A stretch of DNA of 64,000 nt from Methanosphaera sp. (GTDB lineage Archaea; Methanobacteriota; Methanobacteria; Methanobacteriales; Methanobacteriaceae). Positions 11,616 to 22,180 of this stretch are shown here, piece after piece. Numbering within the stretch: the stretch's first letter is position 1; the number at the start of each line of letters is the position of its first letter. The DNA lies in the NCBI RefSeq assembly GCF_022768985.1, contig NZ_JALEKL010000009.1:186001-250000 (forward strand), in the 5' to 3' direction. Below the pieces are notes generated by a model. The model saw only the letters and a program-made list of their open reading frames with translations, was not told where the DNA came from and ran no database searches. The position numbers and the translations under genes were made by a program.

Positions 11616-14117
11616 TTATTTTCCTAGTTCTATTTTTCTAATTAACTTTTTACATTCATTTGAGGTTTTCTTATTGTTAAATGCAAGACTTATTCTTGAT
11701 ATTGCCTCAAGTGTACGTATAATCTGGTCAAGCCATGTGAATATATCACCAGGATAGATGTGAATATCATAGTTTGTCATGAAATACTTACTTATTGCAT
11801 TTGGTGACCATCCATGTATTCTTTGTTTTATTATCTTATCTGAAATATTCATTTCAAAACACCTGCAGAATGGCTTTTCTTTACATCTACATGACATAAA
11901 ATCAACTTGCAATGCAATAAGCTTATCTACATATTGTGGGTCAAGTTTTGCAATTACATCAGCTGATGTTATAATATCACGTGTTGAATCTGCAAATAGT
12001 CTTGAACTTACATTTGTCTTAAGTGCAGCAGATAGTCTGCTTGCAAGTCTGTTACTTATATATGCACTTTCAAATGGTTCTATGAATTCAGCAATATTAA
12101 GTGGTGGCTGCTTTAGGTGTTTTCTTATATATTCTGCCTTATATATTTCAAGGAATGATATTGATACAGCACGACCATAACGTGTTGTGTGATACTTACC
12201 AGTGTTCTTATTTCTCTGAATAAGTTTAAGGTCATATAATTTATCAACCACTTCATCAAAAAGCAGTGGTATTTCAAGAGTATTATAATGCTTATCTAGT
12301 TTTTCAATATCACAGTTTCCCATAGCTGAAATATCAGCAAGTACTTGTTCGTATGTATCATCCTCTGAATATTCAACATTAATATTGTCAACATCACTAT
12401 CAAGCAAGTCAATTGCTGTTTGCTCATCGCTTTGTCCATCAAATTCCTTGTCAAGTTCTGCTATAAGATATACCTTTCCCATATCATGGTATGTTGGCCT
12501 ACCTGCACGTCCTATCATCTGTGAAAATTCATTGTTTGTAAGCCATTTATTTCCCATACGTAGTGTTTCAAATAGTACCTGTGATGCTGGGAAATCCACA
12601 CCTGCTGCAAGTGCTGCTGTTGTTACAACTGTTGAAATCTTCTGTTCTGCAAAGTCTTTTTCTATCTTTAATTTCTTTGAATAAGAAAGACCTGCATGGT
12701 ATGCTGCAGCTGTAATATTATGTTTTGATATACTTTGTGCTATCTGGTGTGTTTTACGTCTTGAATTTGTAAAGATTATTGTCTGTCCATGATATCCCTT
12801 AGATGATTTTGTATTATATTCTTTCTTTGCAAGCTTTCCTAGAAGATCTCTTTTTTCATATTCACTTTTTGCAAAGATAAGATGACGCTCAAGTGGTACA
12901 GGACGTTGTTTATATTCAACAAGCTTCATATTAAAGTCATGTGCAATTCGTTTTGGATTTTTAATTGTTGCTGAAAGTCCAATAAGCTGTACTTTTGGAA
13001 ACATGCTAATTATACGATGTACAAGACCATTAAGTCTTGGACCTCTTTGTTCCTCATCAAGCATGTGAATTTCATCAATTACAACACATCCAAGATTACG
13101 TAGTTGATCATACTGTCCAGATCTTAGCATAAAGTCAAGTCCTTCATATGTTGCAACAATAATATCTGCATCTTTTACTGACTTATTTTGTAGTGTTAAT
13201 TCACCTTTTACTTTAAGACGATTTGAACCTACCTTTATTGCAACTTTAAGTCCAAGCTTTGAATATTGACGTTTAAAATCACGGTACTTCTGGTTTGCAA
13301 GAGCAACAAGAGGTGTTATGTAGATGAACTTCTGATGTCTCATTGCCTTTGGAATACCGGCTAGTTCACCAATTAATGTTTTACCAGATGCTGTGGCAGA
13401 TACTACAAGCATATTTTCACCTTCTAGTACTCCTGCTTTAAGTGCAAGAAGCTGTACAGGAAGGAAGTGTTTAAGGCGTTTTGCTAGTATGTTTTTAAAT
13501 TTATTTGGAATATTAATTTTCTTTGGTGAAATCTTTGGATAATTAGTCTTTTTAACCTCTATTTTATCGTATACTGTTAGTTTATCATGCTTTATTGGAT
13601 TAAATTTAGGGTCAAGTACACTGAGTGTTTTTTCAAGATTATGTGTTTCATCAAGAAGTTTTATAAATCTTGGATATGATACATCAGAATATCCACGAAG
13701 ATGCATTATTCTTTTTATTTCACTTCTTGCACATAGCTTACAGATATATTCATCATAGAGTTTATATGCTGATGACTTTTTAAGTAATGTAATATCTCCA
13801 CTAAATGTACAATGTCGACATATTGTTGTATATTCATATGGGATATTTAGTGAATTAAGCATTTCCTCTAGTTTTTCATCTTTTGTTGCAATGAGAATTT
13901 TCTGTTTTCTTAGAATCTTTATTAGCTCTTTTGGTGATTTGAATGTTTCAACATTATCTTGTTGTATTATAAATCGTTGTGGTCTTATCTTTCCATCTGT
14001 TTCATGAAGCTTAAAATTACCAAAAAATATTGGCTTTCGTCTATTATTTAAAGCTCCCTTTGCAGGACCTATTGGATATAATTCTATTACTTTCTTATTA
14101 CGTCTTAAAATTATCAT
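11616..14117 (-). CDS. Ski2-like DEAD/DEAH-box helicase with N-terminal zinc finger
   Basis: 833 aa. Motifs in order: N-terminal CxxC (C100, C103) and CxxC (C126, C129), a likely zinc finger; ATASGKT (about 241-247); DEIH (about 348-351); SAT (about 383-385); IGRAGRP in motif VI (about 535-541); and a late Cys group CRCKEKPFCRCFE (about 765-777). The helicase core is closest to the Hel308/Ski2 branch; the extra Cys modules resemble a methanogen-specific helicase family (DUF5814-type). Substrate is unknown; RNA decay or DNA repair are both possible. It is divergent to the Mrr island, with 462 bp between, and has no close operon partner. Confidence 0.7.
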   Translation of the reverse strand: MIILRRNKKVIELYPIGPAKGALNNRRKPIFFGNFKLHETDGKIRPQRFIIQQDNVETFKSPKELIKILRKQKILIATKDEKLEEMLNSLNIPYEYTTICRHCTFSGDITLLKKSSAYKLYDEYICKLCARSEIKRIMHLRGYSDVSYPRFIKLLDETHNLEKTLSVLDPKFNPIKHDKLTVYDKIEVKKTNYPKISPKKINIPNKFKNILAKRLKHFLPVQLLALKAGVLEGENMLVVSATASGKTLIGELAGIPKAMRHQKFIYITPLVALANQKYRDFKRQYSKLGLKVAIKVGSNRLKVKGELTLQNKSVKDADIIVATYEGLDFMLRSGQYDQLRNLGCVVIDEIHMLDEEQRGPRLNGLVHRIISMFPKVQLIGLSATIKNPKRIAHDFNMKLVEYKQRPVPLERHLIFAKSEYEKRDLLGKLAKKEYNTKSSKGYHGQTIIFTNSRRKTHQIAQSISKHNITAAAYHAGLSYSKKLKIEKDFAEQKISTVVTTAALAAGVDFPASQVLFETLRMGNKWLTNNEFSQMIGRAGRPTYHDMGKVYLIAELDKEFDGQSDEQTAIDLLDSDVDNINVEYSEDDTYEQVLADISAMGNCDIEKLDKHYNTLEIPLLFDEVVDKLYDLKLIQRNKNTGKYHTTRYGRAVSISFLEIYKAEYIRKHLKQPPLNIAEFIEPFESAYISNRLASRLSAALKTNVSSRLFADSTRDIITSADVIAKLDPQYVDKLIALQVDFMSCRCKEKPFCRCFEMNISDKIIKQRIHGWSPNAISKYFMTNYDIHIYPGDIFTWLDQIIRTLEAISRISLAFNNKKTSNECKKLIRKIELGK

Positions 14118-14579: not shown

Positions 14580-15278
14580 ATGAGCAACAATAAATTACCC
14601 TACACTGTCTTTGTAGTACCAATACTTCAAATTCTTCAAAAAGCTCCATTTAACATGATAGATTATGATATTGTAGAGCCAATCTATAAAAACTATCCAT
14701 TTACAATCGAACAAATTGATGAAAATGAAGCACAAATAGAACTTGCAATAAAATATCTTAAACTTGCAGGATTTATTGAAGAAATAAAAGATGAAAATAA
14801 TGAATTTCTAAAAAATACACCAGAAGGTAGCAAACTACTAAGTGAATCAAAAACAACAAAACAACTACTATCAAAACTAACAGATAAGCTGATGGACGAT
14901 GTATTTGATCTGCCAAAATATAAACAATCACTATACTATCACATAATAACACTACAATTCCTAAAAAATATTGGAAACATACCACAAACAGAAACAGAAA
15001 TGGTACGACGTATCATGAGTACTGAAGGATTTATGCAACATGAAAAAGAGACAATGAATGTAAAATCTGGAAGCTCAACATACTGGAGATTCCACTCAGC
15101 AATATCACACCTATGTAGTGGAAACTTAATTGAATACACACAATATAAGAAATACAAACTAACAGATGAAGGATACAAGGTACTTGAAAATAGAGAAAAC
15201 ATAGAACAAAACGTGGCAGAAGTACTAAGAAAACATGAACATAAAATTAAGCCAAGAAAGATACCAAAAAAGACATAG
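14580..15278 (+). CDS. Stand-alone paired winged-helix protein related to the N-termini of the Mrr proteins
   Basis: 232 aa, not a recognised named protein. Residues about 8-85 and 120-205 look like two winged-helix domains of the Mrr-N type: each has an IDENEAQIELAIKYLKLAGFI-like or AISHLCSGNLIEYTQYKKY-like recognition part followed by a T(P/D)EG(S/Y)K wing. The same two-domain unit opens both nuclease proteins downstream (DDNQI...YL...FI, then YxLTxxGxKILE). No nuclease domain follows; the C-terminus is a short basic tail HKIKPRKIPKKT. It may be a regulator of the island or a decoy/partner subunit. ATG start with AAGAAGGGA about 6 nt upstream. Confidence 0.55.
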   Translation: MSNNKLPYTVFVVPILQILQKAPFNMIDYDIVEPIYKNYPFTIEQIDENEAQIELAIKYLKLAGFIEEIKDENNEFLKNTPEGSKLLSESKTTKQLLSKLTDKLMDDVFDLPKYKQSLYYHIITLQFLKNIGNIPQTETEMVRRIMSTEGFMQHEKETMNVKSGSSTYWRFHSAISHLCSGNLIEYTQYKKYKLTDEGYKVLENRENIEQNVAEVLRKHEHKIKPRKIPKKT

Positions 15279-15392
15279 CAGATAATATAATTTACAAAGT
15301 ATCTAGAATAATGAACAAAAAGGATGTAAAATCCGATAAAATAGGGAGATAATAACCAAAAATTAATAGTTTTAAATATGAGGAGAATTAAT

Positions 15393-17879
15393 ATGAAAAG
15401 AAAACCTGCATACATTGATTTTACAAAAGCTGTACTTGAAACAATAGAGGAAAATCCACAAAAAACACAACAAGAAATACAAGATATCATACTTGAAAAA
15501 TATGACCAATTCACACAAGATGATATAAATGAAGATGACAACCAAATACAAAGAGTAATAAGATATCTTACACTAGCTGAATTTACAACACAAGATGATG
15601 ATGGAAGATGTGTTAATACATCTAAAGGATCACAACAACTAGAATTTAGTAATCTTCAAATTAACAAAATAATAAAAAAAATACTCACAATTCAATTCAA
15701 AATACCTAAAGAACGTGACCTCTGTTATATATGTCTTAATTACTTTAAAGACTATCCTTCACATCCTATAGGTTCAGGCGAAATGTTATGGGATATGCTT
15801 AAGAAAACATCAAAGTATGCAGAAAATAAGGATATATGTGAATTAAGAGCAGCAAAAGGAACACCTATATTATATTCAAAATATGATTTTTCAAATTACC
15901 ATCTTAAAAAACTAGATTTAGTTAAAAAAACAGAAGATAAAGGATATCAAATAACACAAAAAGGACTTGATATATTAAATAAATATGAAACTGAAGAAGA
16001 AGTCAATGAATATATTGATACTCTTTTTCAACAATCTTTAAAAAATAAGGATGAACCAATAAATAAGATTCTTGCATCTGATGATGGACATATCAAAGTA
16101 TTCTATTATGACTATGAACTTACATATCTTGAAGTATTAATTCCTCTCCTTAAAATTATTGACTCAAAATATTATACAAATCAAGAAGAAAAAATAAAAG
16201 ATATTATTATAAAAATGGATGAATTTGAATCATATGATAAAGAAGATATCATTAAAGCAATAGATACTGCACTTCATTATCTTTATGATGGAGAATACAT
16301 AACAATTGAGTCAGGTGAAATCCTAAAAACAGCTAAATTAGCAGCTATTGTTTATAAACTTGATTATAGAATGAAATATGTTGATAGTCTTGATATTGAG
16401 GAATCTGAAAAAGATAAAAAAAGACAAAAAAGACTGAATAATATTTGTAGAGAAATAAATAAAAGTCTTTTCAAAGTATATGATGTTCCAACAAAAGAAG
16501 ATTTATACCAAGATATCTTAAAATATCTGAAAGATGATGATAATAGACCTGTAAATCATCAAAAACTTCCAAGTATAAATTTATTAATAGTACAAGACTT
16601 CCTTGAAAAACACAAGACATACTCAGATAATATAATGAGTATAATCGATCCTGAATCAAGAAGACTTTCAATTAATCTAATAATTGAAGATGCATTTAAA
16701 GAATTAAAACAAAATAAACTAATTAGAAATACTAAAAAATACGGATACTTAATAGAAGAAAAAGGAATAAGATATTTAGAAAAATTAGAAAATGAAAATA
16801 AAACTGAAGACATAAAAAAATCATCCATAGAAGAAGAGAACATAAAACCTGAATTAGTTGATGAAGATAATAATAAAATTGTAAGTACTATTGAACCTAT
16901 TGAATCTAAAACTTCAGAATTTAAAAATCGTGATATGACAACAGATAATATTTATGAAAGATTAGTATTTGATATTTTATGTGACAATGAAGAACATGAA
17001 AAAGTTGACATTATTGATAAAATTGAAGAAACACTAATACCTGGCGTTGTTATACCTAAAGAAATTAAAAATGTTATAAAAGATAATATCCAAGATGCAC
17101 TTGATAAATTTGCACAATATAATATAATTGAACCTGGTGAAAGATTTGGATACTGGAAGATAACACAAAAAGCTATGACAATTGCACATACTATTGATAG
17201 TGAAACACCTACAGTTAATATTGTTAGTGAAACTCCAACTGATGTAGATAATGAAATTGACATTATTGATGAAGATATTATTGAAAGTCCTCTTGAAGAT
17301 GAAATAGAAAATGAAACAATAGAAGATGTTGAAGTAATTGATAAACAAGAAGAAACTACTGAATTTATTGAAATAAATCCTGTTGATACATTTAAAAAGG
17401 CATATGGTGCTATTAATAAAGATCTTAAAAGACGTCTTCTTAATAAAGTTAAATCATGTTCACCATACTTCTTTGAAAAACTTGTACTTGACTTATTTAT
17501 GAAAATGGATTATAACCATGTAAAACCTAAATATGGTGAAGTAACCAAGAAATCAAATGATGGTGGAATTGATGGAGTAATACAACTAGGATACTTAAAT
17601 ACAAACCCAATATACTACCAGGCAAAACGATATGATAGTAACATTCAAAGACCAGCAATACATCAATTCATTGGAGCTCTTCGAGAAATAAAATCAGATA
17701 CAGGAATATTTATAACAACATCAGGATTTTCAAAAGGAGCAATAAAAGCAGCAAAATCTGAGAACATCTCAATGATAGATGGGGATGAACTTGTAAGTTT
17801 AATGATAGAATTTAAAATAGGAGTTAAAGTTAAAAATTATGATATAAAACTTATAGATGATGAATACTTTGAAGATTAA
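15393..17879 (+). CDS. Multi-winged-helix Mrr-type restriction endonuclease (long form)
   Basis: 828 aa from the chosen start. An in-frame ATG at 15378 exists, but GAGGAG lies between the two, so 15393 is the better start. Order: winged-helix pair (about 5-90, 105-200), a second pair (about 235-325, 365-465), a fifth winged-helix-like unit (about 518-600), a very acidic linker (about 605-660) and an Mrr-type PD-(D/E)xK domain (about 680-790). The catalytic signature is complete: E695 in FFEKLV, D723 and D727 in NDGGIDG, and Q743-A-K745 in YYQAKRY. Mrr enzymes cut DNA carrying methylated bases. No methyltransferase gene is nearby, which fits a type IV role. Target and partners are unknown. Confidence 0.75.
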   Translation: MKRKPAYIDFTKAVLETIEENPQKTQQEIQDIILEKYDQFTQDDINEDDNQIQRVIRYLTLAEFTTQDDDGRCVNTSKGSQQLEFSNLQINKIIKKILTIQFKIPKERDLCYICLNYFKDYPSHPIGSGEMLWDMLKKTSKYAENKDICELRAAKGTPILYSKYDFSNYHLKKLDLVKKTEDKGYQITQKGLDILNKYETEEEVNEYIDTLFQQSLKNKDEPINKILASDDGHIKVFYYDYELTYLEVLIPLLKIIDSKYYTNQEEKIKDIIIKMDEFESYDKEDIIKAIDTALHYLYDGEYITIESGEILKTAKLAAIVYKLDYRMKYVDSLDIEESEKDKKRQKRLNNICREINKSLFKVYDVPTKEDLYQDILKYLKDDDNRPVNHQKLPSINLLIVQDFLEKHKTYSDNIMSIIDPESRRLSINLIIEDAFKELKQNKLIRNTKKYGYLIEEKGIRYLEKLENENKTEDIKKSSIEEENIKPELVDEDNNKIVSTIEPIESKTSEFKNRDMTTDNIYERLVFDILCDNEEHEKVDIIDKIEETLIPGVVIPKEIKNVIKDNIQDALDKFAQYNIIEPGERFGYWKITQKAMTIAHTIDSETPTVNIVSETPTDVDNEIDIIDEDIIESPLEDEIENETIEDVEVIDKQEETTEFIEINPVDTFKKAYGAINKDLKRRLLNKVKSCSPYFFEKLVLDLFMKMDYNHVKPKYGEVTKKSNDGGIDGVIQLGYLNTNPIYYQAKRYDSNIQRPAIHQFIGALREIKSDTGIFITTSGFSKGAIKAAKSENISMIDGDELVSLMIEFKIGVKVKNYDIKLIDDEYFED

Positions 17880-17880
17880 C

Positions 17881-17904
17881 TTCCACATCATCCTACTTTT
17901 TTTT
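17881..17904 (+). terminator. C-rich/T-run element between the two Mrr genes
   Basis: TTCCACATCATCCTAC followed by a T8 run at 17897-17904, starting 2 nt after the stop of the long Mrr gene. It suggests that the two nuclease genes can be separate transcripts or that read-through is partial. Confidence 0.4.
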
Positions 17905-17927
17905 ATAAATAATAAGGAATAATTAAA

Positions 17928-19517
17928 ATGACCAAACTAAGTAAAAAACCAACAAACATAGTCTTTCTTTTGCCAGTTCTTAGAATACTTGATAAAACAT
18001 CATATTATCTAGATGATGATGAAATTCAGCAAATAATCCTTGAAAACTCTGAATATACTACTAATGATATAAGAGAAGATGACAACCAGATAAAAAGAGC
18101 TATTCTTTACTTAAATCATGTAGGATTTATTAAAGAAGATCATCATGGAAATTATCAAATTACAAAAGATGGACGCACTTTATTTAATGATTCTAAAAAA
18201 ACAGAAGAACAAAAAGAAAGAGTGATAGTTAATAAGCTTTCAAAAGATGTCTACAATATACCAAGTACTGATGATGTTTATTCAACATTCCTTATTTATC
18301 TTCGAGATAATCCAAATCATCCAATAAGACGTAAAGATTCAATATATGATGCAATAGAAAAGAACACTAACTTTTATAATAATAAAGATGTTATGGAACT
18401 TAGATCACCTAAGAAGAGAACATTTAAAGGAGAAAATATTATTTACTCCAGATTTGACTATGCAATTTCTGATCTTAGCAGAGTTAACTTAATTGAAAAA
18501 TCTGATAATAAAGGATATCAACTAACACAGAAAGGTTTTAAAATACTTGAAGATGAAGAAAATATTAAAACTAATGTATCTAAACTACTAAAGAATACAA
18601 AACCAAAATCAAAGAAAAAGAAAAAGAAAAAACAAGTTGTAGCTGATATTAAAATAGAAAATAATCCACCTGTAAGTATATCTGCTGATGAAGTTTATGA
18701 AAAACTATTTCTTGAAGTTTTAAGTGATAGAAAAGAACATAAAAAGAGAAGTATATTTAAGGCAATTGAGGAAGCTCTTATCCCAGATGTTGAAATTCCA
18801 GATAATATTAAAAAGGCTGTAGATAAGAATATTGAAAAAGTGAAACTAAAACTTGAAAAAGAAGATATTATTATACAAGCTACTAAGAAGGGATACTGGA
18901 AACTAACAGATCATGGTATTAAATTACTCAATGAAGATAATAGTCATAAAGTTGAAGTTCCAATTGAAGTTAAAAAAAATGATAATATAAATCCTATTGA
19001 TACATTTAAAAAGTCATATCATGATATTAAGAATTCATTTGATAAACAATTACTTGATAAAATTACATCATGTTCACCTGAGTTTTTTGAAAATCTTGTA
19101 CTTGATTTACTACTCAAAGAAGATAAGATTGATGGATTAAAACCAATAGATGGTTATGTTACACCTTTATCACGAGATGGTGGTATTGATGGTAAAATTT
19201 ATTTTGATGGTTTAAAATTCCCTATGTGTTTTCAGGCAAAACGTTATCAGATAAAAAGTAATGTTCAAAGACCTGAAATTCAGAGTTTTATTGGAGCTCT
19301 AAGAGATTATGAAAATAGAACTAATGAAGAAACCTTCAAAGGTATATTTGTTACAACATCAGACTTTTCAACCGGTGCAAAAGAAACTGCAAAATCCAAT
19401 GATATTATCCTAAAAAATGGTGACGATATTGTAAAATTAATGAAAAAACACAAAGTTGGAATTAAGAAAGAAACATATAAAGTAGATCTTATTGATGATA
19501 AATACTTTGAAGAATAA
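17928..19517 (+). CDS. Winged-helix Mrr-type restriction endonuclease (short form)
   Basis: 529 aa. Two N-terminal winged-helix domains (about 10-90 and 115-210), a lysine-rich linker (KPKSKKKKKKK, 225-235), a third winged-helix-like unit (about 255-337) that closely matches the fifth unit of the preceding protein, then an Mrr catalytic domain (about 375-485). The catalytic residues are intact: E389 in FFENLV, D417 and D421 in RDGGIDG, Q436-A-K438 in FQAKRY. Compared with the long paralogue it lacks the middle winged-helix pair. Base and codon use look like the neighbours, so any transfer is old or from a similar genome. It starts with ATG after AAGGAAT. Confidence 0.75.
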   Translation: MTKLSKKPTNIVFLLPVLRILDKTSYYLDDDEIQQIILENSEYTTNDIREDDNQIKRAILYLNHVGFIKEDHHGNYQITKDGRTLFNDSKKTEEQKERVIVNKLSKDVYNIPSTDDVYSTFLIYLRDNPNHPIRRKDSIYDAIEKNTNFYNNKDVMELRSPKKRTFKGENIIYSRFDYAISDLSRVNLIEKSDNKGYQLTQKGFKILEDEENIKTNVSKLLKNTKPKSKKKKKKKQVVADIKIENNPPVSISADEVYEKLFLEVLSDRKEHKKRSIFKAIEEALIPDVEIPDNIKKAVDKNIEKVKLKLEKEDIIIQATKKGYWKLTDHGIKLLNEDNSHKVEVPIEVKKNDNINPIDTFKKSYHDIKNSFDKQLLDKITSCSPEFFENLVLDLLLKEDKIDGLKPIDGYVTPLSRDGGIDGKIYFDGLKFPMCFQAKRYQIKSNVQRPEIQSFIGALRDYENRTNEETFKGIFVTTSDFSTGAKETAKSNDIILKNGDDIVKLMKKHKVGIKKETYKVDLIDDKYFEE

Positions 19518-19555
19518 TCCCATTAATGAAAACTATTTTAAGAGTTGATTAAGCT

Positions 19556-20104
19556 ATGAATAAGAATTCAAAAATTATAATAGGTATCATAGTTGTTATC
19601 TGTGTTGTTCTTACAGCTGGTGTGCTTTATGGTTATGTTGGATCTTCAAGCTTCTATGCTAACATGGCAAATATATCAGCTGAGGAGAAGTTAGCATATA
19701 TTTCAGTAGATGATGCTGTAAGTGAAAATGTTACAAATCCTGTTGATATAATAGAAGAAGAAAATGATTATATTATCTCACTTAATGAATCTATCAAAAA
19801 ACTTGATGGTAGTAAGTGGATGATTCAAAATGAAACAATAAAGCAATACATTGATCTTGAAATTACACAACGTCAAAATCAGATAAAGCTTTGTAAAGAC
19901 ATTATAGAATTAAACAATATAAAACAGGAATATAATGCTGATCACTTTGGATATGGACAATATAAACTACAAGTTGATACAGCAATGGATAAAATTAATG
20001 AAACTAAAAAATCAGTTGATACAACTAAAGATATGAAAAAACAATTACTAAATGCACATAGTGACATTAAAAGTCAACTAAAAAGTGCAGGTGTTGATGT
20101 ATAA
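19556..20104 (+). CDS. Small membrane-anchored protein, paralogue 1 of 3
   Basis: 182 aa, function unknown. One N-terminal hydrophobic helix (about residues 6-28) is followed by a helical, probably outside-facing domain with N-glycosylation-type sequons (NIS, NVT, NES, NET). The central SLNESIKKL...NETIKQYIDLEI and the late AHSDIKSQL recur in the next two proteins. No lipobox or C-terminal anchor is seen. It begins 38 nt after the short Mrr gene and overlaps the next gene by one base (TAATG), so the three are an operon that may continue from the nuclease gene. Confidence 0.5.
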   Translation: MNKNSKIIIGIIVVICVVLTAGVLYGYVGSSSFYANMANISAEEKLAYISVDDAVSENVTNPVDIIEEENDYIISLNESIKKLDGSKWMIQNETIKQYIDLEITQRQNQIKLCKDIIELNNIKQEYNADHFGYGQYKLQVDTAMDKINETKKSVDTTKDMKKQLLNAHSDIKSQLKSAGVDV

Positions 20105-20703
20105 TGAAGAAAAACATTAAAATTCTTGCAATACTTCTAGTTATTATTATAATCCCTGTAGCATATTATGGAATAACAACAGCTATGAACAACATGGAAC
20201 AGGAGAACTTCTATAATACAATAAAAAATGTAAGTGATAATGAAAATATAACAGATAAACCTATATCCCAATACATAGAAGATGATAAACTTAATACAAC
20301 AAGACTAATAGAACTTGAAGTTGAAAATTCAAAAACACTCAATACATCTATCGCAACACTGAAAGAACTTAATAAATCACTTCGTAATGAAACTCTAAAA
20401 GAATATGTAAATATTGAAATTATACGTATGGAAAATGAAGTTGAAAGTTCTGATGCTCTTATAAAATTTGCACAAAAAGCAAGAGATTACTATGATGGTA
20501 AATTAGGTGCAAATGAAATGTTATCATATCTAGATAATCATAAAAAACAGACAGATAAGATAGATACTAGAGTTGATGATGCTAAAACTGATGCTATGGA
20601 GTTTCTAACAGCACATCCTGATATAAAAGAGAAATTTGATGAACTGAAAATTGATGAAGACTTTATGATACTGGAATTTGGTCCTAAATCTAAGAAGAAT
20701 TAA
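20104..20703 (+). CDS. Small membrane-anchored protein, paralogue 2 of 3
   Basis: 199 aa, function unknown. N-terminal transmembrane helix about 5-25, then MEQENFYNTIKNVSDNENITD and a long helical region. It shares LKELNxSLRNxTLKEYVNIE and DDAKTDAMEFLTAHPD with the next gene nearly word for word, so the pair is a recent tandem duplication; paralogue 1 is more distant. Start overlaps the previous stop. Sequons NVS, NIT, NTT, NTS and NKS suggest exposure outside the cell. No enzyme motif seen. Confidence 0.5.
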   Translation: MKKNIKILAILLVIIIIPVAYYGITTAMNNMEQENFYNTIKNVSDNENITDKPISQYIEDDKLNTTRLIELEVENSKTLNTSIATLKELNKSLRNETLKEYVNIEIIRMENEVESSDALIKFAQKARDYYDGKLGANEMLSYLDNHKKQTDKIDTRVDDAKTDAMEFLTAHPDIKEKFDELKIDEDFMILEFGPKSKKN

Positions 20704-20718
20704 AGTGGTGAATATATT

Positions 20719-21318
20719 ATGCGACAAAAATATAAGATTCTTATTATTGTATTAATTGTTATATTGATTCCTGCAGGATTTTATGGATTAATGACACTTA
20801 TGAATAATATGGAGCAGGAGAACTTCTATAATACAATTAAAAATGTTAGTGATAATGAAAATATTACAGATGGTCCTATATCTGAAACTATTATGGATAA
20901 GAATTTAAATATTACAAAAGCTATTGATGCTGAAGTTGGCAATTCAAAGACTCTTAATAGTTCAATTGCAACACTTAAAGAACTTAATGAATCACTTCGC
21001 AATGATACACTAAAGGAGTATGTGAACATTGAAATTAGGCGTATGCAAGAGGAAGTTAAAGTTGCAGATAAAGTTATAAAGTATGCATATGAACTTAGAG
21101 ATTATAATAATGGTAAGATAAGTTCATCTGAGATGTTATCATATTATAATCAGTATGAAAAAGATATTGCTAAACTTGGAACTCGTGTTGATGATGCAAA
21201 AACTGATGCTATGGAGTTTTTAACAGCACATCCTGATATGAAAGAGAAGTTTGATGAACTAGGAATTGATGAGGATTTCATGATTCTTGAACAAGGTCCT
21301 AAATCTAGCAAAACATAA
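20719..21318 (+). CDS. Small membrane-anchored protein, paralogue 3 of 3
   Basis: 199 aa, function unknown. Same length and layout as paralogue 2: transmembrane helix at about 5-26, NNMEQENFYNTIKNVSDNEN, then the shared helical domain ending DEDFMILEQGPKSSKT. It differs mainly in the loop around IMDKNLNITKAIDAEV and in the middle. Spacing to the previous stop is 15 nt with GGTGAA before the ATG. A C-rich/T-run element follows, so the operon ends here. Confidence 0.5.
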   Translation: MRQKYKILIIVLIVILIPAGFYGLMTLMNNMEQENFYNTIKNVSDNENITDGPISETIMDKNLNITKAIDAEVGNSKTLNSSIATLKELNESLRNDTLKEYVNIEIRRMQEEVKVADKVIKYAYELRDYNNGKISSSEMLSYYNQYEKDIAKLGTRVDDAKTDAMEFLTAHPDMKEKFDELGIDEDFMILEQGPKSSKT

Positions 21319-21338
21319 CCACCCCTATACTTTTTTTT
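21319..21338 (+). terminator. C-rich/T-run 3' element ending the island
   Basis: CCACCCC immediately after the stop codon, then a T8 run at 21331-21338, followed by a second T-run near 21343. Confidence 0.45.
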
Positions 21339-21544
21339 ATACTTTTTTTATCATGATTATTTTAAGATTTAGTTTAGGTTTTTCTAGTAAATTTAAATTT
21401 AGTGTTGTATTTTTTTATTTAAATTTAACTTTAAGGGCTTAAATAATAATATATAGAGTTATAAAATATTATTATAGTTAAAACTAAAATATGAAAAAAT
21501 AAATTTTTAGAAAAAATGAAAAACTTTTTTAATTAAATTATAGG

Positions 21545-22180
21545 ATGTATGATATTTTGTATAATATGGGAGCATCAACCAAACCTGGATATGATATTGC
21601 AAATAAAAGTCGTGAAATTATTAAAGAATTAATTGATGATCAAACTAAAGATCTTACATATGAAGAACGTGACATTGTTGAACGTGTTGTTCATTCAACA
21701 GCAGATCCTGAATATGCAAAGCTTGTTAAAATTTCACCTGACTTTGTTGACACAGCACTTAAATGCTTTGATGATGGTAAAGATATATTAACTGATATTA
21801 ACATGGTAAAATCTGGAATTACAAGATATGAAGGAGATGTAATGTGTTATATTCGTGATGAACGTGCTGTTAAACTTGCAAAAAAAGAGGAAATTACACG
21901 TTCTGCAGCTGCTATGAGAGTTGCAGCTGAGGATGGATTTAGTGGTGTTGTTGCAATTGGTAATGCACCTACTGCATTATTTGAAGTTATGGATCTTGTA
22001 GAAGAAGGTATTATGGATGCTAAAGCTGTTGTTGGTGTACCTGTTGGATTTGTTGGAGCTGCTGATTCTAAAGAAGCTCTTAGTTTAACTGAAATTCCAC
22101 ATGTTATAACAACAGGTCCTAAAGGTGGAACACCTATTGCTGTTGCTGTAATTAACTCACTTCTTAACATAAGAAAATAG
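21545..22180 (+). CDS. cbiC: Cobalt-precorrin-8 methylmutase CbiC
   Basis: 211 aa. It moves a methyl group from C-11 to C-12 to give cobyrinate in anaerobic cobamide synthesis. The family features are PGYDIANKSREII near the N-terminus, ERVVHSTADPEYA with the probable catalytic His, and the glycine-rich AIGNAPTALFEVMDLV plus VVGVPVGFVGAADSKEAL. The start is uncertain: AGG of the only ribosome-site-like stretch abuts the ATG at 21545, so a TTG at 21557 or the ATG at 21566 may be used. A C-rich/T-run element follows the stop. Confidence 0.88.
   Translation: MYDILYNMGASTKPGYDIANKSREIIKELIDDQTKDLTYEERDIVERVVHSTADPEYAKLVKISPDFVDTALKCFDDGKDILTDINMVKSGITRYEGDVMCYIRDERAVKLAKKEEITRSAAAMRVAAEDGFSGVVAIGNAPTALFEVMDLVEEGIMDAKAVVGVPVGFVGAADSKEALSLTEIPHVITTGPKGGTPIAVAVINSLLNIRK

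What the first reader, a model, noticed from the sequence alone, without database searches (positions are those of the whole stretch)
14580..21318. Candidate lineage-specific defence island: winged-helix/Mrr nucleases with membrane-anchored partners
Six consecutive plus-strand genes: a nuclease-less winged-helix protein, two Mrr-type endonucleases with intact catalytic residues, and three small N-terminally anchored paralogues that start 38 nt after the second nuclease. No DNA methyltransferase is present, as expected for a modification-dependent (type IV) restriction locus. Mrr proteins are known; a pairing with a set of tandem, probably outside-facing membrane proteins is one I do not know. 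One reading is that the membrane proteins sense phage or incoming DNA and the nucleases act on it; another is chance adjacency.
Basis: partly seen in the sequence, partly recalled or inferred. Interest (0 to 1): 0.7.

Follow-up and report, generated by a model that had tools for sequence, protein, structure and literature searches.

The report
Mrr restriction island with surface-protein genes
A methanogen carries a young gene island encoding two DNA-cutting enzymes of a known restriction family (Mrr), with unusually many DNA-reading modules, followed in what looks like the same transcript by three surface proteins from a family found throughout the genus; the enzymes are probably antiviral, but nothing here shows that the surface proteins work with them.

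Summary
All six genes are present at the stated coordinates. The island (14580-21318) occurs in 2 of 20 genus genomes, G000 (the window) and its sister G108, at the same place between a helicase gene and a cbiC-like gene. In 13 other genomes these two genes are only 151-273 bp apart; two more carry unrelated cargo there. So it is a lineage-specific insertion. Its five Mrr catalytic domains form one clade (98/98), with an intact D-GxDG-QxK motif. Each enzyme carries 1-3 copies of a ~230-aa double winged-helix module that I found complete nowhere else in the phylum. Gene 1 is a nuclease-less member.

The pairing is only partly supported. Mrr529 and the three membrane genes look co-transcribed (terminator T-runs lie before and after, none between), and G108 has a homologue 29 nt behind its last Mrr. 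However, this is one shared inheritance, the G108 copy is frameshifted, and the membrane family is genus-wide (33 of 37 members tested lie elsewhere). The proteins are predicted outward-facing, with about 6 cytoplasmic residues, so direct signalling to a cytosolic nuclease is unlikely.

Best reading: an Mrr (type IV-like) restriction locus with multiplied reader modules and co-transcribed surface-protein passengers.

The parts
14580..15278 (+). nuclease-less double winged-helix protein (232 aa): one copy of the reader module
   Evidence: Mrr_N 5e-9; blastp to the N-terminal modules of Mrr529 (31%, 3e-25) and Mrr833 (25%, 1e-11); in G108 the first gene of the island has the module plus a nuclease (428 aa)
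15378..17879 (+). Mrr833: two reader modules + canonical winged helix + Mrr_cat PD-(D/E)XK nuclease
   Evidence: Mrr_cat 1.2e-29, residues 692-809; module duplication; PADLOC mREase_IV 1e-34
17897..17904 (+). T8 run after the Mrr833 stop: probable transcription terminator separating gene 2 from gene 3
   Evidence: T7+ runs: none on the coding strand of 57 ORFs, within 60 nt after the stop of 22 of them
17928..19517 (+). Mrr529: one reader module (two winged helices) + third winged helix + Mrr_cat nuclease
   Evidence: Mrr_cat 5.1e-21, Mrr_N 7.8e-18; three winged-helix units in a low-confidence model, pLDDT 60; residues 257-529 align with canonical ~300-aa Mrr proteins of bacteria and archaea
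19556..20104 (+). m1: N-anchored extracytoplasmic protein, distant member of the genus-wide family
   Evidence: E=1e-10 to m3; unresolved long branch in the tree; 5 sequons vs 1.7 expected
20104..20703 (+). m2: N-anchored extracytoplasmic four-helix protein
   Evidence: AlphaFold2 model pLDDT 76, helices 65-92, 96-130, 136-170 plus the anchor helix 4-46; 6 sequons vs 2.1 expected
20719..21318 (+). m3: close paralogue of m2
   Evidence: 68% identical to m2; dN 0.22, dS 0.84; clade with m2 and the G108 copy, 97/86
21331..21349 (+). double T-run after m3: probable terminator of the Mrr529-m1-m2-m3 unit
11616..14117 (-). left flank: conserved DEAD/DEAH helicase with DUF5814 (not part of the island; marks the insertion site)
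   Evidence: present in all 20 genus genomes; Pfam
21545..22180 (+). right flank: conserved CbiC-like gene (name is my own reading), followed by a conserved HemL-like gene (marks the insertion site)
   Evidence: present in 19 of 20 genus genomes, next to the helicase in 13

Best explanation
A 7-kb lineage-specific island was acquired or assembled once, in the common ancestor of the window species and its sister G108, between a divergently transcribed helicase and a cbiC-like gene. Its core is a set of Mrr-family endonucleases in which the DNA-reading part has been multiplied: one to three ~230-aa modules of two winged helices each sit in front of the Mrr PD-(D/E)XK nuclease (and, in four of the five nucleases, the canonical Mrr winged helix). 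A nuclease-less copy (gene 1) may bind the same DNA as a regulator or extra subunit. Most likely the modules read a modification or sequence context found on incoming viral or plasmid DNA and not on the host's own methylated DNA, and the nuclease domain then cuts. That is type IV-like restriction, with duplication and divergence of modules changing specificity. The three membrane proteins are most likely co-transcribed with Mrr529 but act separately at the cell surface, as members of a genus-wide outward-facing four-helix family. Shown by sequence: the domains, catalytic motif, module duplications, insertion polymorphism, shared ancestry with G108, and terminator layout. Inferred: restriction function, modification dependence, co-transcription, and independence of the membrane proteins.
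For: Mrr_cat, Mrr_N and PADLOC mREase_IV hits; motif residues invariant in five copies. Module counts 1+2+1 in G000 and 1+3+1 in G108, the complete module found only in these two of 152 phylum genomes. Island in 2 of 20 genomes, empty site of 151-273 bp in 13, other cargo in 2. G000 and G108 sister by flank genes (100/99), island Mrr clade 98/98. Mrr proteins only 29-32% identical between the two species over long alignments while flanks are 60-96% identical, a pattern common for defence genes. Membrane family genus-wide with 33 of 37 members elsewhere. Membrane proteins: anchor after ~6 residues (sequence), four-helix model, N-glycosylation sequons enriched about 2-4 fold while the Mrr proteins show no excess. 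Terminator pattern.
Against: No cleavage, methylation or expression data. The genome has at least four HsdM-type N6 methyltransferases and three C5 methyltransferases, so an enzyme as broad as E. coli Mrr would attack the host; specificity must differ, or the enzymes are tightly controlled or do something else. A PF04471 nuclease of about 300 aa is nearly universal in this family of archaea (127 of 139 genomes), so Mrr_cat alone does not mean defence.
Confidence: 0.55

Rival explanations
1. One integrated defence system: m1-m3 sense virus attachment or DNA entry at the envelope and switch on or recruit the Mrr nucleases, functionally like Zorya, Kiwa or SNIPE.
For: Probable single transcript Mrr529-m1-m2-m3. 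A membrane gene lies 29 nt after the last Mrr in sister species G108 although the Mrr genes there have been reshuffled. The m2/m3/G108 subclade is found only with the Mrrs. m2/m3 are under purifying selection. Membrane-sensor plus nuclease systems exist (PMC12904381).
Against: Only ~6 cytoplasmic residues per protein (sequence), so no cytosolic signalling part. No match to Zorya or Kiwa membrane proteins. The family is otherwise free of these nucleases. The G108 membrane gene is split by a frameshift while its three Mrrs are intact, though assembly error is possible. Co-occurrence counts once, because the two genomes share the island by descent. Mrr homologues elsewhere show no small membrane partner as a rule.
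Confidence: 0.15
2. Chance accretion: the helicase/cbiC-like intergenic site collects foreign genes, and the membrane genes landed beside the Mrr genes with no functional or transcriptional link.
For: Two other species carry unrelated single genes at the same site (L071, L072). The membrane family is dispersed over the genomes. Short gaps are common in this genome (17 of 40 pairs are 40 nt or less).
Against: No terminator-like T-run between Mrr529, m1, m2 and m3, while there is one on each side of this unit. The order was kept while the island Mrr proteins diverged to about 30% identity.
Confidence: 0.2
3. The multi-winged-helix Mrr proteins are not restriction enzymes but DNA-repair or chromosome-handling nucleases, or regulators.
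For: A ~300-aa Mrr_cat gene is near-universal in these archaea, so the fold has housekeeping uses. The genome is methylase-rich. The reader modules match winged-helix regulator families weakly.
Against: Sporadic presence (2 of 20 species), fast divergence and tandem paralogues are not typical of housekeeping genes. The best specific library match is type IV mREase.
Confidence: 0.1

Closest known systems
Mrr type IV restriction endonuclease (E. coli K-12 Mrr; Pfam Mrr_N + Mrr_cat; PADLOC mREase_IV)
   Same: C-terminal ~270 aa (winged helix + PD-(D/E)XK with QxK) align with canonical ~300-aa Mrr proteins; no linked methyltransferase
   Different: one to three extra ~230-aa double winged-helix modules in front; two or three paralogues in tandem plus, in the window, a nuclease-less copy; modification dependence untested
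Winged-helix fusion endonucleases that read N6-methyladenine (PMC11037411)
   Same: winged helices as DNA or modification readers fused to a nuclease, usually without a neighbouring methyltransferase
   Different: those characterised there carry other nuclease types (DpnI-like PD-(D/E)XK, HNH, GIY-YIG, PLD); here several winged helices are stacked before an Mrr_cat domain, and reading of m6A is not shown
Zorya / Kiwa / SNIPE (membrane-linked DNA-targeting defence)
   Same: membrane protein genes next to a DNA-cutting or DNA-binding effector; Mrr529 matches the Mrr-like nuclease region of ZorD (9.8e-9)
   Different: no ZorA/ZorB motor, no SNF2 helicase, no KwaA/KwaB; single-pass anchors with outward domains and almost no cytosolic part

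Membership tests
Mrr-type (type IV) restriction endonuclease | Mrr_cat PD-(D/E)XK nuclease with intact D...(E/Q)xK motif | tested here: met
   D417, G419, D421, Q436, K438 (Mrr529 numbering) invariant in five copies
Mrr-type (type IV) restriction endonuclease | N-terminal Mrr_N winged helix | tested here: met
   above the curated cut-off in all three proteins; winged-helix topology repeated three times in a low-confidence model
Mrr-type (type IV) restriction endonuclease | no cognate modification enzyme in the locus | tested here: met
   none between the helicase and cbiC-like genes; several methyltransferases elsewhere in the genome
Mrr-type (type IV) restriction endonuclease | cleaves modified DNA and not the host's own DNA | not testable with these tools
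   needs biochemistry or transformation assays
Zorya | ZorA/ZorB membrane motor proteins | tested here: not met
   m1-m3 match no PADLOC family and no Pfam family above cut-off
Zorya | ZorD SNF2 helicase + Mrr-like nuclease | tested here: not met
   only the nuclease region (941-1067 of 1071) is matched
Kiwa | KwaA membrane protein and KwaB DNA-binding protein | tested here: not met
   no Kwa family among the matches
Defence island / variable locus | presence-absence between close relatives at a fixed site | tested here: met
   island in 2, empty site in 13, other cargo in 2, not assessable in 3 of 20 genomes

The most novel reading that the evidence does not exclude
A two-layer antiviral operon: surface-displayed, probably glycosylated four-helix proteins that act at virus attachment or DNA entry, encoded in one transcript with an Mrr nuclease whose reader modules are duplicated and diversified, so that surface and cytosolic defence are deployed together.
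Probability: 0.15. Interest if true: 0.6.

Novelty: new variant of a known kind. Interest (0 to 1): 0.36.

Why it matters
Defence in gut methanogens is little studied (my own judgement), and this gives a clear case of a restriction locus gained by one small lineage, with an empty-site comparison in 13 relatives. The variable number of winged-helix reader modules before a conserved nuclease offers a natural series for asking how Mrr enzymes choose DNA, a question left open for E. coli Mrr (PMC3874153). The surface-protein link, if it proved functional, would be a new kind of pairing, but present evidence does not show it.

Tried and rejected
Looked for a general Mrr + small membrane protein pairing in about 50 Mrr-containing loci (bacteria and other Methanobacteriaceae): no consistent small single-pass partner. 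Searched the membrane family in viral contigs and phage records: nothing. Reader module on plasmids: nothing. Fold search of the m2 model against PDB and viral structures: no match at E<=0.001, only generic helical bundles. PDB sequence search of Mrr529: no hit; of the membrane alignment: only coiled-coil noise. Considered a link between the membrane family and a second helicase paralogue in G112, G113 and G115, because both lie within a few kb; the loci look like ordinary chromosomal gene order, so rejected. The AlphaFold model of Mrr529 is low-confidence (pLDDT 60, pTM 0.32) and is used only for winged-helix topology.

Full report
What is there. Six plus-strand genes fill 14580-21318, exactly as described. 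Gene 1 (232 aa) carries Mrr_N but no nuclease. Gene 2 (833 aa) and gene 3 (529 aa) carry Mrr_N and Mrr_cat far above Pfam cut-offs and match the PADLOC type IV mREase model. The active-site motif (D-GxDG...QxK) is invariant among the five island nucleases of two genomes. Genes 4-6 (m1, m2, m3) start 38 nt after gene 3, m1 and m2 overlap by one base, and none matches a family above cut-off. m2 and m3 are 68% identical; m1 is only a distant relative.

Modular nucleases. Self-comparison shows a ~230-aa module at the N-terminus: once in the 232-aa protein, twice in Mrr833, once in Mrr529. The Mrr529 model, though of low confidence, shows helix-helix-helix-strand-strand units at about 10-78, 114-199 and 253-326, i.e. 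two winged helices per module plus the canonical Mrr winged helix. Residues 257-529 of Mrr529 align with ordinary ~300-aa Mrr proteins across bacteria and archaea. A profile of the module finds the whole module only in the window genome and G108 among 152 genomes of the phylum; elsewhere it touches only the Mrr_N half in smaller proteins. A search of plasmid records with the Mrr529 module found nothing.

A lineage-specific island. In the sister genome G108 the same site holds three Mrr genes (428 aa with one module, 1045 aa with three, 519 aa with one) and one membrane gene. In 13 other genus genomes the helicase and the cbiC-like gene are separated by 151-273 bp only. G122 and G125 have about 1.2-1.3 kb there with unrelated genes, and three genomes could not be assessed. 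Flanking genes place G000 and G108 as sisters (100/99). The five nuclease domains form one clade (98/98), with Mrr833 pairing with the G108 428-aa protein and the 519- and 1045-aa proteins pairing with each other. So there was one ancestral island, then reshuffling and module gain or loss. Island nucleases are only 29-32% identical between the two species over long alignments, while flanking proteins are 60-96% identical.

The membrane proteins. They belong to a family present in 19 of the 20 genus genomes (25 of 139 in the taxonomic family). In a tree of 37 members, 17 form a conserved orthologue group outside the island, and others are scattered; m2, m3 and the G108 island copy form a supported clade (97/86) found only with the Mrr genes, whereas m1 sits on an unresolved long branch. 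For that tree the two reading-frame fragments of the G108 copy were joined as one row. Each protein starts with about six residues including lysines, then a hydrophobic anchor, then ~150-170 outward residues. N-glycosylation sequons exceed shuffled expectation (5-8 against 1.7-2.5 in the island copies), while the Mrr proteins show no excess. The m2 model is a helical bundle (pLDDT 76) with no convincing structural relative. m2 and m3 differ under purifying selection (dN 0.22, dS 0.84).

Are they linked? For: in this window T7+ runs never occur on the coding strand of 57 ORFs but follow the stop of 22, so they mark transcript ends well. Such runs follow Mrr833 and m3 and are absent after Mrr529, m1 and m2, which predicts a unit Mrr529-m1-m2-m3. 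In G108 the membrane gene starts 29 nt after the last Mrr, again without a T-run, and a T-run follows the membrane gene. Against: this is one shared inheritance, not independent recurrence. The G108 gene is split by a frameshift (63 + 160 aa, both halves still similar to m2), either decay or assembly error. 33 of 37 family members have no such nuclease beside them. Mrr relatives elsewhere have no consistent membrane partner. Short gaps are common (17 of 40 pairs at 40 nt or less). The anchors leave about six residues in the cytosol, so direct signalling to a cytosolic nuclease is hard to picture without an unknown third protein.

How it most likely works. Mrr enzymes pair a winged-helix reader with a PD-(D/E)XK cutter and act on modified DNA in E. 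coli (PMC3874153); winged-helix readers of N6-methyladenine are widespread in such stand-alone nucleases (PMC11037411). I infer that the stacked modules recognise incoming DNA carrying a mark or context that the host lacks, and that the duplicated, fast-evolving modules alter specificity. The host carries several DNA methyltransferases (at least four HsdM-type N6, three C5), so the enzymes must spare those marks or be tightly controlled. m1-m3 are best read as co-transcribed surface proteins with their own role; a surface barrier to viruses is possible but unshown.

Comparison with the known. By tested features the nucleases are Mrr family members; modification dependence was not testable. The locus is not Zorya or Kiwa by the components tested, although a membrane-plus-nuclease plan has precedents (PMC12904381). 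Verdict: a real, lineage-specific Mrr island with an unusual reader architecture; the two-part 'system' is possible but weakly supported.

Noticed in passing
L071:1550-2086 (-) and L072:1566-2630 (-): In G122 and G125 the same helicase/cbiC-like intergenic site carries other single genes (a 178-aa hydrophobic protein; a 354-aa DUF6270 protein), so the site takes up different cargo.
   Followed up: partly
L064:6191-7511 (-) and L065:6780-7412 (+): The window genome has another tandem pair of the membrane family and one conserved orthologue present in 17 genus genomes, both away from any Mrr gene found.
   Followed up: partly
window 1-64000: T7+ runs never occur on the coding strand of 57 ORFs but follow the stop codon of 22 within 60 nt, in the island and at cbiC after a C-rich stretch such as CACCCCT; a simple and apparently reliable terminator mark for this genome.
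   Followed up: partly
G000:C4:30812-31147 (outside the window): A separate ~300-aa Mrr_cat protein is near-universal in this taxonomic family (Mrr_cat in 127 of 139 genomes), suggesting a conserved, perhaps non-defence role for this nuclease fold.
   Followed up: no
G000:C9:176621-177529 (about 9 kb before the window start): A strong HsdM-type N6 methyltransferase lies close to the window; the genome has at least four such genes and three C5 methyltransferases, which limits what the Mrr enzymes may cut.
   Followed up: partly
L063:9172-9787 (-): The island membrane gene of G108 is split into two overlapping frames (63 and 160 aa) near an AT-rich, slippage-prone AATAATAAT stretch; real frameshift or assembly error is undecided.
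   Followed up: partly
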